From Nodosilinea sp. FACHB-131 (GTDB lineage: Bacteria > Cyanobacteriota > Cyanobacteriia > Phormidesmidales > Phormidesmidaceae), in assembly GCF_014695395.1 (NCBI RefSeq), contig NZ_JACJOF010000008.1, forward strand, positions 1-64,000: DNA of 64,000 nucleotides. Direction: 5' to 3'. Position 1 is the first letter of the stretch; every line of letters begins with the position of its first letter. Below the pieces are notes generated by a model. The model did no database searches. It had not been told where the DNA came from and worked only from the letters and a program-made list of their open reading frames with translations. Below are positions 22,144 through 45,657 of the stretch, one piece after another. Both the position numbers and the translations under genes were made by a program.

Positions 22144-22734
22144 ATGGCTAGCCCATCGCCAGAGTCGGCGCGATTTTTTGTGGCCCTACTGCCGCCCCAG
22201 CCGGTGCAGGACGCCATCACCGCCATCAAGCAGGACGTTGAGCGGCGCTTTGGCAGCAAGGCCGCCCTCAGATCCCCACCCCACATCACCCTACAGCCGC
22301 CCTTTGAGTGGCCTCTAGAGCGGCTGGACGAGCTACAGCACCATCTGCATAGATTTGCCGGTCAGCAGCGGCCTATTCCCATTGTTCTAGAAGGGTTTAG
22401 CGCTTTTCCGCCGCGAGTGATCTATGTAGACGTGCACCAGACGGCAGCGTTGATGGCCATTCAACCAGCCTTAATAAGCCATCTAGACACCCACTGTGGG
22501 CTGCGGCAGGGCTACCGAGCCGGTGCTCATCGCCGCACCCCTTGGCCCTTTACCCCCCATGTCACCGTGGGCTTCCGTGACCTTGCGCCCGCTGCCTTTC
22601 ACCAGGCCTGGGCTGAGTTTGAGCACCGCCCTTTCTCAGCCGATTTTGAGGTGCCTACCCTCACCCTGCTCCGTCACGATGGGCAGGTATGGCAAATTTT
22701 TTCTGAGCAGCCGCTGGGTGCGCCAAAGCCTTGA
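22144..22734 (+). CDS. thpR: 2'-5' RNA ligase / cyclic phosphodiesterase family protein
   Basis: A 196-residue 2H-phosphoesterase. The two catalytic H-x-T motifs are present: PHITLQ (about 49) and PHVTVG (about 140). Family members open 2',3'-cyclic phosphates or join RNA 2'-5' in vitro; their cell role is unclear. ATG 22144 (MASPSPESARFFVALLPP) is chosen; an upstream TTG at 22126 adds six residues. It is probably co-transcribed with the DUF2808 gene. Confidence 0.85.
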   Translation: MASPSPESARFFVALLPPQPVQDAITAIKQDVERRFGSKAALRSPPHITLQPPFEWPLERLDELQHHLHRFAGQQRPIPIVLEGFSAFPPRVIYVDVHQTAALMAIQPALISHLDTHCGLRQGYRAGAHRRTPWPFTPHVTVGFRDLAPAAFHQAWAEFEHRPFSADFEVPTLTLLRHDGQVWQIFSEQPLGAPKP

Positions 22735-22785
22735 GTTACCAGGCATACGGGATTATGTAGAAGCTTATACAGAATAGAAATTCCC

Positions 22786-22817
22786 TTGACATCACCCAAA
22801 ACCGTAGCTTACTATAC
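22786..22817 (+). promoter_or_regulatory. gifB promoter with NtcA site over the -10 box
   Basis: TTGACA at 22786-22791 and TACTAT at 22810-22815 are separated by 18 bases, a good sigma-70 promoter. A perfect NtcA consensus GTA-N8-TAC (22804-22817) lies directly over the -10 box, the position expected for repression by NtcA. This matches the known arrangement of NtcA-repressed gif genes in Synechocystis. Confidence 0.8.
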
Positions 22818-22832
22818 AGAAGTAATCAGAAA

Positions 22833-22906
22833 TTCGTTCATCTCGCTTTTTCGTTACTGGCTAAAGCGAGACGGAAGTAGGGGTTAATAGCCCCCGAAGG
22901 AACGCG
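22833..22906 (+). ncRNA. Glutamine riboswitch (glnA RNA motif)
   Basis: The leader carries the conserved core of the glnA/glutamine riboswitch: P1 CGTTC (22835-22839) with GAACG (22900-22904); P2 TCTCGC (22841-22846) with GCGAGA (22866-22871); the invariant GACGGAAGTAGG after P2; P3 GGGG (22880-22883) with CCCC (22891-22894); and CCGAAGGAACG closing P1. The element binds L-glutamine. It sits 44 bases before gifB, the same place as in Synechocystis gifB, where glutamine binding raises expression of the inhibitor. Confidence 0.93.
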
Positions 22907-22945
22907 CCCCAATGTTCTGATCAAACCCTTGATCTTTTGGAGGCG
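22905..22945 (+). promoter_or_regulatory. Possible Shine-Dalgarno-sequestering stem of gifB
   Basis: CGCCCCAA (22905-22912), which directly abuts the 3' strand of riboswitch P1, can pair with TTGGaGGCG (22937-22945; one A bulge), covering the GGAGG ribosome site at 22939-22943. Ligand-stabilised P1 could compete with this stem. The pairing is seen; the switching role is inference. Confidence 0.45.
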
Positions 22946-22950
22946 ACCCC

Positions 22951-23421
22951 ATGCAACTTACCTATCGCGGCGTAAGCCACGACTACAATCCCCCCGTTGT
23001 GGAATCCAACTTAACCGATGAAGTTGGCAAGTTCCGCGGTGTAGATATTCGATTTCGCACTGTTAAGAAAGCTGCTGTGCAACAGCCCACCCTGGACTTG
23101 GTCTATCGTGGTGTGGCCTATCAGACCGGCACCTCTGAGGTAGCCCCTGTCGTTGAGACAGCGCCTGTCGTTGCCACAGCGCCCGTGGCTGCGATCGCCG
23201 CTCCCGCAGTGGCAACCACCCTTAGCACCGAAGACAGAGCCCGCATGAGCATGATGAACCGTCATCGCTCCGTGAAGCAGCGTCAGCAATCGATGCTGGC
23301 CCGTCTGGCTACCGAAGCTGGTCTGCCCGCCGAAGCTGCCCAATACTGGAACCACATTCAGGGCAAGGTGCACCCTAGCTTTTGGGCTACCTACAGCCGC
23401 AGCGGTGCAGCTGTTAGCTAA
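22951..23421 (+). CDS. gifB: Glutamine synthetase inactivating factor IF17-like, with DUF4278 N-terminus
   Basis: A 156-residue protein. Residues about 93-156 (STEDRARMSMMNRHRSVKQR, then QQSMLARLATEAG and FWATYSRS) match the GS-binding module of cyanobacterial inactivating factors IF7/IF17, including the spaced arginines known to contact glutamine synthetase. Residues 1-60 hold two DUF4278-like motifs (LTYRGVSHDY, LVYRGVAYQ), joined by an Ala/Pro/Val linker. By binding GlnA it would switch off ammonium assimilation when nitrogen is plentiful. The upstream NtcA site, the glutamine riboswitch and a perfect terminator make a complete single-gene unit. IF17 of Synechocystis is of similar length (about 149). 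An automatic pipeline may name it only DUF4278. Confidence 0.9.
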   Translation: MQLTYRGVSHDYNPPVVESNLTDEVGKFRGVDIRFRTVKKAAVQQPTLDLVYRGVAYQTGTSEVAPVVETAPVVATAPVAAIAAPAVATTLSTEDRARMSMMNRHRSVKQRQQSMLARLATEAGLPAEAAQYWNHIQGKVHPSFWATYSRSGAAVS

Positions 23422-23440
23422 GCACTCGACCTGTTGAATA

Positions 23441-23478
23441 AACAGCCCCTGCCAGCAACGTCTGGCAGGGGCTGTTTT
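23441..23478 (+). terminator. Terminator of gifB
   Basis: A perfect 15-bp stem (23441-23455 with 23462-23476; core CAGCCCCTGCCAG) with loop CAACGT, ending in TTTT. It lies 20 bases after the gifB stop codon. Confidence 0.93.
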
Positions 23479-23770
23479 GTTGGCAGCTGATGCCGGAACC
23501 TGTCCTTTAGAGCAATCCGGCTGTAAATACCGCTAGCACCTCAGCGGGTTTGTTGCCGAAAGAAGTAGATTGGGCGAGATAAATTGCCGAGCAGTTGGGA
23601 AATATAGGTCCATTGATATGGGGCAGTAGTGATACAGAAGGAAAGCTGCCCCCGCCCAAATTAGTGGTCAAGCAGATTAGATTCACGCTTAGAACTTCCC
23701 TTTTTGCCCCGTGTTTTCTAAACCCCTGATGTGGTGAGACCTAACCGCCTAGGGTGTCTCCATTTACCTG

Positions 23771-43745: not shown

Positions 43746-44238
43746 AGGTGGTTTCTCCCAACTCTCACTTGGCAAACAGCATTTTATAAATGGTGGCAGG
43801 CGCAGGCTGCCCGTCTCTGGCTAAAGGCTCTAACCCCAAGGGCCAAAACCCTGATAAATGCCAGGTTTTATCTTCGAAGAAGTTTACCACGGGGGCTCAA
43901 CCCCTGGGTTGCCCAAGCCCGTCAGAGGCGGGGCTTTATGAGCGAATTGTTACAAAACATCATGGTCTGCCCTGGAGCTTTTGTTGGCTTTCCCTGACAA
44001 AAAGTATTGGGTGATACAAAACCGGCCAACCCCTCTCCCTAGGATGATTCTGATGAGTTGATACCTGTGGAACCAACAGGATCAGAGTGCCCGTGCCCAT
44101 AAACCGGTGTTGTATAGGGCTTGCCTGTTGCAGCCTTGCCGATTTGGCAGGGGATTTGGGACGGAGCCAGGGCATCATCTACGACGAGTTAAATCGGTTT
44201 CCCCACGTTTGAACGCTAAAGAGGCTAAGGAGTAGTTC
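43746..44238. other. Divergent apcF-glnA regulatory region
   Basis: About 490 bases. The glnA half holds the NtcA promoter described separately and a leader of roughly 185 bases. The apcF half has G/C-rich inverted repeats (e.g. GGGCTCAACCC / GGGTTGCCC at about 43893-43914, and AAGCCC / GGGCTT around 43916-43936) that may structure the apcF leader. No glutamine riboswitch is present before glnA. Confidence 0.55.
44004..44045 (+). promoter_or_regulatory. NtcA-activated glnA promoter
   Basis: A perfect NtcA site GTA-TTGGGTGA-TAC (44004-44017) is followed 22 bases later by TAGGAT (44040-44045), which fits TAN3T. This is the canonical class II NtcA-activated arrangement. The transcript should begin near 44052 and carry a leader of about 185 bases. 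Confidence 0.9.
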
Positions 44239-45657
44239 ATGGCAACCCCAGCAGACATCCTGAAGTGGATTGAGGATGACGGCATTGAATTGATTGATCT
44301 GAAGTTTATTGACATGCCGGGTATCTGGCAGCACCTCACTCTACACAAGAGCCAGATTGACGAGAGCAGCTTTACCGATGGGGTAGCTTTCGATGGCTCC
44401 AGCATTCGGGGTTGGAAGGCCATCAACGAGTCAGACATGATGATGGTGCCCGATCCTGACACTGCCTGGATCGACCCCTTCATGGCGGAGCCGACCCTGA
44501 GCATGATCTGCACCATCAAAGAGCCCCGCACCGGCGAGCTTTATGCTCGCTGCCCTCGGGCGATCGCCACCAAGGCGATCGAGTACCTCAAGTCCACTGG
44601 TCTGGGCGACACCGCCTTCTTTGGTCCTGAAGCTGAGTTCTTCATCTTTGATGATGTGCGCTTCGACCAAAACGAGCATTCGGCTTACTACTACGTCGAT
44701 AGCGTCGAGGGTCGCTGGAACACGGGTCGCGAAGAAGTGGGCGGCAACCTCGGCTACAAACCCCGCTACAAAGAGGGCTACTTCCCCGTCGCCCCCACCG
44801 ACACCTCCCAGGATATGCGCAGCGAAATGCTGCTGACCATGGCCAAGCTAGGTGTACCGATCGAGAAGCACCACCACGAAGTGGCTACCGGCGGTCAGTG
44901 CGAGCTGGGCATTCGCTTTGGGCGGCTGATTGAGGCTGCCGACTGGTTGATGATCTACAAGTACTGCATCAAGAACGTCGCCAAGAAGTGGGGCAAGACC
45001 GTCACCTTCATGCCCAAACCGCTGTTTAACGACAACGGCTCTGGCATGCACACCCACCAGTCAATCTGGAACAACGGTGAGCCTCTGTTTGCAGGCGATC
45101 GCTACGCCGGGCTGAGCCAAATGGCCCTGTGGTACATCGGTGGCATTCTCAAGCACGCCCCCGCCCTGCTGGCGCTGACCAACCCCACCACTAACTCTTA
45201 CAAGCGTCTGGTACCGGGCTTTGAAGCGCCGGTGAACCTGGCCTACTCCCAGGGCAACCGCTCGGCTTCGGTGCGCATTCCCCTCTCCGGCGATAACCCC
45301 AAGGCTAAGCGCCTAGAGTTCCGCTGCCCCGATGCTACCTCAAACCCCTACCTGGCTTTTGCAGCGATGCTTTGCGCTGGTATCGACGGCATCAAAAACC
45401 AGATCGACCCCGGCGACCCGTTGGATGTGGACATCTACGACCTCAGCCCCGAAGAGCTGGCGAAGATTCCCTCGACCCCCGGCTCGCTGCTCGATGCCCT
45501 CAAGGCTCTCGAAGCCGACCACAGTTTCTTGACCAGCACTGGCGTCTTCACCGAAGACTTCATCAGCAACTGGATCGAGTACAAGCTCGACAACGAAGTC
45601 AACCCCATGCGCCTGCGCCCCCACCCCTACGAACTAGCCCTCTACTACGATTGCTAG
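44239..45657 (+). CDS. glnA: Glutamine synthetase, type I
   Basis: A 472-residue GSI that makes glutamine from glutamate, ammonium and ATP in a dodecamer. Motifs include [43 protein letters not shown] and [12 protein letters not shown]. The region around the classical adenylylation tyrosine (DIYDLSPEE) is present, but cyanobacterial GSI is controlled by protein inhibitors rather than by adenylylation, and one, gifB, is at 22951. Expression should rise when NtcA is active (nitrogen shortage). It ends in a good terminator and appears monocistronic. Confidence 0.98.

What the first reader, a model, noticed from the sequence alone, without database searches (positions are those of the whole stretch)
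22786..23421. Three-layer control of a glutamine synthetase inhibitor: NtcA on the -10 box, glutamine riboswitch, gifB
Seen: TTGACA/TACTAT promoter, perfect GTA-N8-TAC over the -10 box, full glutamine-riboswitch core, then a gene whose last 64 residues match IF7/IF17. Known: NtcA represses gif genes in Synechocystis and a glutamine riboswitch controls gifB there. Inference: this organism has the same AND-type logic (low NtcA activity plus high glutamine). A pipeline would probably label the gene only DUF4278 and miss the circuit.
Basis: partly seen in the sequence, partly recalled or inferred. Interest (0 to 1): 0.85.

Follow-up and report, generated by a model that had tools for sequence, protein, structure and literature searches.

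The report
Riboswitch-controlled glutamine synthetase inhibitor gene
A cyanobacterium seems to make a small protein that shuts down its ammonium-assimilating enzyme only when nitrogen is plentiful, using a promoter block and a glutamine-sensing RNA together; the circuit is known from a model strain, but the same pair of controls also precedes other small regulators.

Summary
Window 22786-23421 carries a TTGACA-18-TACTAT promoter, a perfect GTA-N8-TAC NtcA-type site over the -10 box, a type-1 glutamine riboswitch (RF01739, 57.1 bits, cut-off 35) and a 156-aa gene: DUF4278 plus a GS-inactivating-factor domain (NCBIfam IF7A, 93.6 bits, cut-off 70). This is gifB/IF17 with the promoter and leader described for Synechocystis, in a Nodosilinea-like genome: a new member of a known kind. 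Its likely target, type-I glnA, lies about 21 kb away in the window behind an activator-type NtcA promoter.

(2) One of those four genes is a DUF4278-PirA fusion. In sampled cyanobacteria N-terminally extended PirA is a DUF4278 fusion (38 of 40), usually behind a glutamine riboswitch (30 of 40); short PirA is not (0 of 30). This bears on an open question of the PirA paper (PMC8092223). DUF4278, glutamine riboswitch and NtcA operator look like one portable nitrogen-excess module. Glutamine binding, NtcA binding and GS inhibition are inferred, not shown.

The parts
22757..22770 (+). second NtcA-like site GTAGAAGCTTATAC, upstream of the -35 box, centre 47 bp from the proximal site
   Evidence: a GTA-N8-TAC 45-130 nt 5' of the aptamer in 16 of 25 class-A rows of the same genus
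22786..22791 (+). -35 hexamer TTGACA
22804..22817 (+). NtcA-type operator GTAGCTTACTATAC over the -10 box
   Evidence: box present in 38 of 38 class-A riboswitch rows and 70 of 76 named IF17-like loci with a riboswitch
22810..22815 (+). -10 hexamer TACTAT
22833..22908 (+). type-1 glutamine riboswitch aptamer (RF01739); P1 = 22835-22839 with 22900-22904
   Evidence: P1, P2, P3 in the consensus fold of 21 leaders, with both-sided changes in P2 and P3
22905..22910 (+). anti-Shine-Dalgarno CGCCCC, directly 3' of P1
   Evidence: consensus fold; complementarity above shuffled sequence but no covariation
22939..22945 (+). Shine-Dalgarno region GGAGGCG, pairs with 22905-22910 (A22941 bulged)
22951..23421 (+). 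gifB-like gene, 156 aa: DUF4278 (res 1-57), linker, IF7-like GS-inactivating domain (res 92-156)
   Evidence: R98, R111, R118 invariant in 41 aligned sequences, this one included
23443..23478 (+). probable intrinsic terminator (13-bp stem, loop CAACGT, TTTT)
   Evidence: read directly from the sequence; the pattern scan did not list it
44004..44045 (+). activator-type NtcA promoter GTA-N8-TAC-N22-TAN3T before glnA
   Evidence: only match in the window, 0.07 expected
44239..45657 (+). glnA, type-I glutamine synthetase, the expected target of the inhibitor
   Evidence: TIGR00653, 681.2 bits, cut-off 429

Best explanation
This is gifB, encoding an IF17-type glutamine synthetase inactivating factor, under two controls. 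When nitrogen is short, NtcA (active with high 2-oxoglutarate) sits on GTAGCTTACTATAC and blocks RNA polymerase at the -10 box. When nitrogen is plentiful NtcA leaves and the gene is transcribed; the leader then needs glutamine: without it the CGCCCC next to P1 pairs with the Shine-Dalgarno GGAGGCG and translation is low, with it the ribosome site is free. IF17 then binds and inactivates GlnA, encoded about 21 kb away behind an activator-type NtcA promoter, so inhibitor and enzyme are regulated oppositely. Shown here: the sequence elements, their conservation, the protein domains, NtcA and GlnA in the genome. Inferred: NtcA binding, glutamine binding, direction of the switch, GS inactivation.
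For: RF01739 57.1 bits. IF7A 93.6 bits over cut-off 70; DUF4278 71.8 bits. Arginines R98, R111, R118 invariant in 41 aligned sequences; PMC6316151 says three conserved arginines of IF7 are essential for GS binding, with a weaker effect in IF17. Of 80 named IF17-like loci 76 carry RF01739 (20/20, 20/20, 19/20, 17/20) and 70 of those 76 a perfect GTA-N8-TAC within 60 nt 5' of the aptamer, with 0 of 76 at each other spacing N4-N13. Repressor position: in Synechocystis the sites are at -30.5 (gifA) and -7.5 (gifB), against about -41.5 for activators. NtcA gene 384.5 bits. glnA with GTA-N8-TAC-N22-TAN3T.
Against: The anti-SD/SD helix does not covary: over 81 distinct leader pairs, swapping partners gives the same pairing score (observed 15.93, swapped mean 15.99), and in the consensus fold it abuts P1 instead of competing with it, so how glutamine would release the ribosome site is not explained. 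The leader does not fold significantly better than shuffled sequence (z -0.87). No transcript or binding data.
Confidence: 0.93

Rival explanations
1. The NtcA-like site is a chance palindrome inside an A/T-rich promoter and only the riboswitch controls the gene.
For: GTA-N8-TAC is expected about 5 times in the window by chance and 9 are seen.
Against: 128 of 151 riboswitch leaders have the site, shuffles average 1.8 and never exceed 5 in 200; other spacings give 0-3. Outside the own genus 41 of 53 rows, outside the own family 18 of 23 rows in 13 families. In the named set 70 of 76 against 0 at each other spacing.
Confidence: 0.02
2. NtcA activates rather than represses the gene.
For: NtcA commonly acts as an activator (PMC7760959, passage), and a second site lies upstream of the -35 box (22757-22770), with a counterpart in 16 of 25 class-A rows of the genus.
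Against: The proximal site overlaps the -10 box, where bound NtcA would exclude polymerase; activator sites centre near -41.5 (PMC8092223) and glnA in this window has an activator-type layout. A glutamine-activated GS inhibitor made under nitrogen starvation would make little sense.
Confidence: 0.03
3. The protein is a DUF4278 protein whose C-terminal half no longer inhibits GS, so the circuit controls something else.
For: Other genes with this same control lack the IF7 domain (44 of 151 rows are DUF4278-only proteins of at most 70 aa), so the control does not prove GS inhibition.
Against: The IF7A model matches above its equivalog cut-off and the three arginines are invariant.
Confidence: 0.04

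Closest known systems
gifB (sll1515) of Synechocystis sp. PCC 6803: IF17 with glutamine riboswitch and NtcA repression
   Same: DUF4278 N-terminus, IF7-like C-terminus, type-1 glutamine aptamer in the 5' UTR, NtcA site over the core promoter (stated in PMC6316151)
   Different: 156 against 149 aa (length from PMC7760959); two NtcA-like sites here; the genome has a second IF17 (C20, 161 aa, IF7A 58.5 bits, below the cut-off of 70) with the same box and riboswitch, and a search with the IF7-like domain found only these two places
gifB1 of Limnospira indica PCC 8005
   Same: gifB homologue immediately preceded by a glutamine riboswitch (PMC8400943, passages)
   Different: another lineage; that paper also reports a second glutamine riboswitch, in the passages seen without a named target
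[quoted passage not shown]
   Same: NtcA-repressed small protein of nitrogen excess; in this genome the one PirA found is the C-terminus of a DUF4278 protein with NtcA box and glutamine riboswitch
   Different: Synechocystis PirA is 51 aa; PMC8092223 mentions extended PirA in a few strains as possible false annotations of elusive function (passages)
Type-2 (DP) glutamine riboswitch genes of marine picocyanobacteria
   Same: glutamine riboswitch before small DUF4278 proteins, with an NtcA motif in at least PMM1846 (PMC6316151)
   Different: another aptamer class (RF01704); the window has RF01739

Membership tests
Type-1 glutamine riboswitch (RF01739) | match to the covariance model above gathering score | tested here: met
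   57.1 bits against 35
Type-1 glutamine riboswitch (RF01739) | located in the 5' leader of a nitrogen-related or DUF4278 gene | tested here: met
   42 nt before the DUF4278/IF7 start codon
Type-1 glutamine riboswitch (RF01739) | selective binding of L-glutamine that changes expression | not testable with these tools
   needs in-line probing and a reporter
IF17 / GifB | C-terminal IF7-like domain | tested here: met
   NF052599 93.6 bits, cut-off 70, residues 92-156
IF17 / GifB | N-terminal extension = DUF4278 | tested here: met
   PF14105 71.8 bits, residues 1-57
IF17 / GifB | three conserved arginines involved in GS binding | tested here: met
   R98, R111, R118 invariant in 41 sequences; that they are the residues mutated in Synechocystis IF7 (spacing 13 and 7) is recalled, not looked up
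IF17 / GifB | inactivates glutamine synthetase | not testable with these tools
   needs an enzyme assay
NtcA-repressed promoter | GTA-N8-TAC at the core promoter, not near -41.5 | tested here: met
   22804-22817 over TACTAT; the true start site is not known
NtcA-repressed promoter | NtcA encoded in the genome | tested here: met
   TIGR03697 384.5 bits, cut-off 245
NtcA-repressed promoter | NtcA binding and ammonium induction | not testable with these tools
   needs footprint and RNA data
PirA (for the gene at own genome C2:60848) | match to PirA_Argsyn above cut-off | tested here: met
   59.4 bits, cut-off 50, residues 92-135
PirA (for the gene at own genome C2:60848) | binds PII and restrains NAGK activation | not testable with these tools
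   needs BLI or pull-down

The most novel reading that the evidence does not exclude
NtcA operator, glutamine riboswitch and DUF4278 form one portable nitrogen-excess module that has been attached to at least two effector tails with no detected relationship: the GS inhibitor IF7 (giving IF17) and the PII/arginine regulator PirA (giving DUF4278-PirA). Each effector thus exists in a short form answering to NtcA (2-oxoglutarate) alone and a long form that usually answers to NtcA and glutamine. The DUF4278-only 56-aa proteins and the ~38-aa membrane micropeptides led by the same riboswitch would then be further, undescribed nitrogen-excess regulators.
Probability: 0.6. Interest if true: 0.62.

Novelty: new member of a known kind. 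Interest (0 to 1): 0.48.

Why it matters
The window gene shows that the gifB arrangement of Synechocystis is preserved in a Nodosilinea-like filamentous cyanobacterium, with the likely target glnA nearby under the opposite type of NtcA promoter. The larger gain is the rule behind it. In the genomes sampled the glutamine riboswitch usually stands right behind an NtcA operator, so two nitrogen signals (2-oxoglutarate and glutamine) would be read in series at most targets. The same module stands before DUF4278-PirA fusions, which would put arginine/PII control under glutamine sensing as well, and it suggests that the extended PirA proteins, suspected to be false annotations in PMC8092223, are real conserved genes. 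Both predictions can be tested directly, and the riboswitch gives a handle for finding further small regulators.

Tried and rejected
GSIII next to the DUF4278-PirA gene: a 726-aa open frame matching Gln-synt_C ends about 0.8 kb from it in the own genome, which suggested a GSIII regulator. tblastn over 12 DUF4278-PirA neighbourhoods (9 to 20 kb each) found it in 1 of 12, the own genome only, so I dropped the idea.

Covariation of anti-SD and SD: complementarity exceeds shuffled anti-SD (15.9 against 11.1) but not swapped partners (15.99), so there is no covariation evidence.

Homology of the IF7 and PirA tails: a profile comparison of 41 IF17 and 41 extended-PirA rows aligned only the DUF4278 part (65 columns, 99.8% probability); the tails did not align.

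Solved structures: no convincing relative of the window protein (best E 0.87). AlphaFold model: pLDDT 63, pTM 0.31, strands in 2-58, pLDDT under 50 in 60-88, helix 93-123; too weak for a fold search, so none was run.

Whether the aptamer-lacking IF17 homologues keep the box: of the 4 (L219, L233, L236, L250) only L250 visibly keeps a GTA-N8-TAC (sequence printed, read by eye).

Class counts rest on regular expressions; L018 was filed under 'IF7-like' only because it contains QGK and by eye belongs with the ~90-aa group.

An error found on re-checking: the short-PirA locus L287 was read at the wrong place, because its contig is cut. One search repeats the test with the right place: 28 of 30 with the box (one search had 27) and still 0 of 30 with an aptamer.

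Full report
WHAT IS THERE. The leader and gene are as described. The pattern scan finds one promoter in 22600-23600, TTGACA-18-TACTAT. GTAGCTTACTATAC (22804-22817) covers its -10 box. Rfam's glutamine riboswitch follows at 22833-22908 with 57.1 bits. The 156-aa ORF 22951-23421 matches DUF4278 in residues 1-57 (71.8 bits) and the NCBIfam equivalog GS_inact_IF7A in residues 92-156 (93.6 bits, cut-off 70). Near relatives with names are Nodosilinea sp. WJT8-NPBG4 (90% identity), Tildeniella torsiva (89%) and Nodosilinea sp. LEGE 07298 (82%).

THE TARGET IS IN THE SAME WINDOW. A type-I glnA lies at 44239-45657 (TIGR00653, 681.2 bits for 44239-45654). Upstream is GTATTGGGTGATAC-N22-TAGGAT, the only GTA-N8-TAC-N22-TAN3T of the window (0.07 expected), the layout of NtcA-activated promoters (recalled; PMC8092223 gives about -41.5 for activators). 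The inhibitor gene has NtcA on the -10 box and the enzyme gene has it at the activating distance. The genome has one NtcA match over the family cut-off (384.5 bits).

THE NTCA BOX BELONGS TO THE RIBOSWITCH. The own genome has four RF01739 elements. Each precedes a DUF4278 gene, and each has a perfect GTA-N8-TAC just 5' of the aptamer (sequences; all four scored): this IF17; a second IF17 of 161 aa (C20); a 56-aa DUF4278-only protein (C3); a 138-aa DUF4278 protein (C2). A fifth DUF4278 match, just at the cut-off (C27, 25.3 bits), is not among the four riboswitch loci. In 57 genomes (the own one and relatives), 49 have RF01739. I took the places listed plus the C2 element, 151 rows in 47 genomes; further weaker places were not listed and are not counted. 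Of the 151 rows, 128 have GTA-N8-TAC within 60 nt 5' of the aptamer; 200 dinucleotide shuffles average 1.8, maximum 5; other spacings N4-N13 give 0-3 rows. Relatedness inflates this count: 98 rows are from the own genus (87 with the box); outside the genus it is 41 of 53 (21 genera), outside the family 18 of 23 (13 families), and one row per genus and gene class gives 42 of 52. By gene class (assigned by pattern): IF17 type A 38/38, IF17 type B 25/26, DUF4278-only 40/44, DUF4278 with PirA-like tail 11/12, membrane micropeptide 4/12, ~90-aa proteins 0/4, DUF4278-free group 2/2, cut 4/5, other 4/8. So the coupling is weak or absent in the micropeptide and ~90-aa classes. Rows without the box include two elements inside a tandem array in G026 (L122, L127).

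NAMED, PROTEIN-SELECTED CHECK. A search seeded with IF17 proteins, blind to leaders, kept the best 80 of 133 relatives; the weaker rows match only part of the query (for example residues 1-125), so not all need be true IF17. 76 of 80 carry RF01739, and 70 of these 76 carry GTA-N8-TAC; 0 of 76 at any other spacing; 5 of the 6 misses keep GT-N10-AC. The set overlaps in organisms with the previous one and is not fully independent.

PIRA FUSIONS. The tail of the C2 protein is PirA (NF050139, 59.4 bits, cut-off 50), the only PirA match found in the genome. Of the 12 proteins of that class I scanned 11: 10 pass the cut-off, one scores 45.5. PMC8092223 (passages read) notes N-terminally extended PirA in a few strains and says false annotation cannot be excluded and the function is elusive. 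I therefore searched PirA itself, blind to leaders: 186 of 242 genomes of the class match at E 0.001, 137 over the cut-off (the list of places was capped). From the listed matches I fetched 40 with an open frame of 114 aa or more (not all of them). All 40 match PirA (41 of 41 with the C2 protein), 38 of 40 also match DUF4278 (39 of 41 with the C2 protein), and 30 of 40 have RF01739 (16/20 and 14/20), on the same strand in 30 of 30, with GTA-N8-TAC in 27 of those 30 and at no other spacing tested. Against a strict rule: 10 of 40 lack the riboswitch, and 9 of these 10 start like DUF4278; 7 of the 10 still have a GTA-N8-TAC within 250 nt. The 30 short PirA loci (best-scoring matches) have no aptamer by pattern (0 of 30), none of the listed RF01739 places in their genomes lies beside them (25 of 30 genomes have one elsewhere; coordinates compared by eye), none has a YRG motif in frame upstream, and 28 of 30 have GTA-N8-TAC within about 250 nt (one search gave 27 with one locus misread, shuffles averaging 2.2). 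Eight genomes (G057, G069, G072, G146, G180, G208, G221, G237) were examined with both forms: long form with riboswitch, short form without. Fisher test 30/40 against 0/30: p 1.6e-11, ignoring relatedness. One further short PirA (G069 C58), outside the 30, sits in an apparent operon behind a riboswitch and a 49-aa IF7-like ORF (24.7 bits, below cut-off). So PirA occurs in a short form and in a DUF4278-bearing long form that usually has the riboswitch, as IF7 and IF17 do. For IF7 the short-form side is taken from the literature, not surveyed here.

MECHANISM. Consensus folding of 21 leaders gives P1-P3 of the aptamer and a helix between CGCCCC right after P1 (22905-22910) and the Shine-Dalgarno GGAGGCG (22939-22945). 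This fits a translational switch, and papers seen in passages state that glutamine raises IF17 synthesis in Synechocystis (also section 12 of PMC6316151). How ligand binding would open the helix is not visible: it abuts P1, and no covariation supports it. A second NtcA-like site at 22757-22770 has a counterpart in 16 of 25 class-A rows of the genus; two sites are also described for Synechocystis pirA.

WHAT IS KNOWN. NtcA repression of gifA/gifB, the gifB riboswitch and the frequent DUF4278 association are in print (PMC6316151, passages and section 12 read). Seven searches with words for glutamine riboswitches, NtcA, DUF4278 and PirA listed no paper that I recognised as describing DUF4278-PirA or a general NtcA-riboswitch coupling; only listings and passages of some papers were seen (PMC6316151, PMC11288750, PMC8092223, PMC7760959, PMC9196836, PMC7760821, PMC13362535, PMC8400943), and the primary paper Klahn et al. 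2018 could not be read. Novelty of those two points is therefore provisional.

VERDICT. The window feature is an ordinary, well-preserved gifB circuit, a new member of a known kind. The extension to a module shared with PirA is the part of interest.

Noticed in passing
own genome C2:60848-61261 (L004 1628-2044): DUF4278-PirA fusion with NtcA box and glutamine riboswitch, the only PirA match found in the genome
   Followed up: yes
L337-L340 and the window's genome C28:48354-48464 (L159): ~38-aa single-membrane-span micropeptide behind a glutamine riboswitch in 12 of 151 rows, in four loci beside what looks by eye like a ferredoxin-sulfite reductase gene; in the own genome a diverged copy remains without a detected riboswitch
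   Followed up: partly
L336 (G026 C2:1066802-1067466): tandem array of three riboswitch-led 56-aa DUF4278 units about 0.3 kb apart; only the first has the NtcA box (the looser pattern printed none for it, because its aptamer match began further upstream)
   Followed up: partly
L335 254-691 (G069 C58): glutamine riboswitch followed by a 49-aa IF7-like ORF and a 50-aa PirA, an apparent operon
   Followed up: partly
L051, L066, L079, L099: ~94-aa proteins behind a glutamine riboswitch, all four without the NtcA box; no family above cut-off for the one scanned, L099
   Followed up: no
L250: IF17 homologue that keeps a GTA-N8-TAC box but has no aptamer hit in its leader
   Followed up: no
own genome C20:447998-448477: second IF17 (161 aa) scores 58.5 bits with IF7A, under the cut-off of 70, so that model would not name it
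   Followed up: partly
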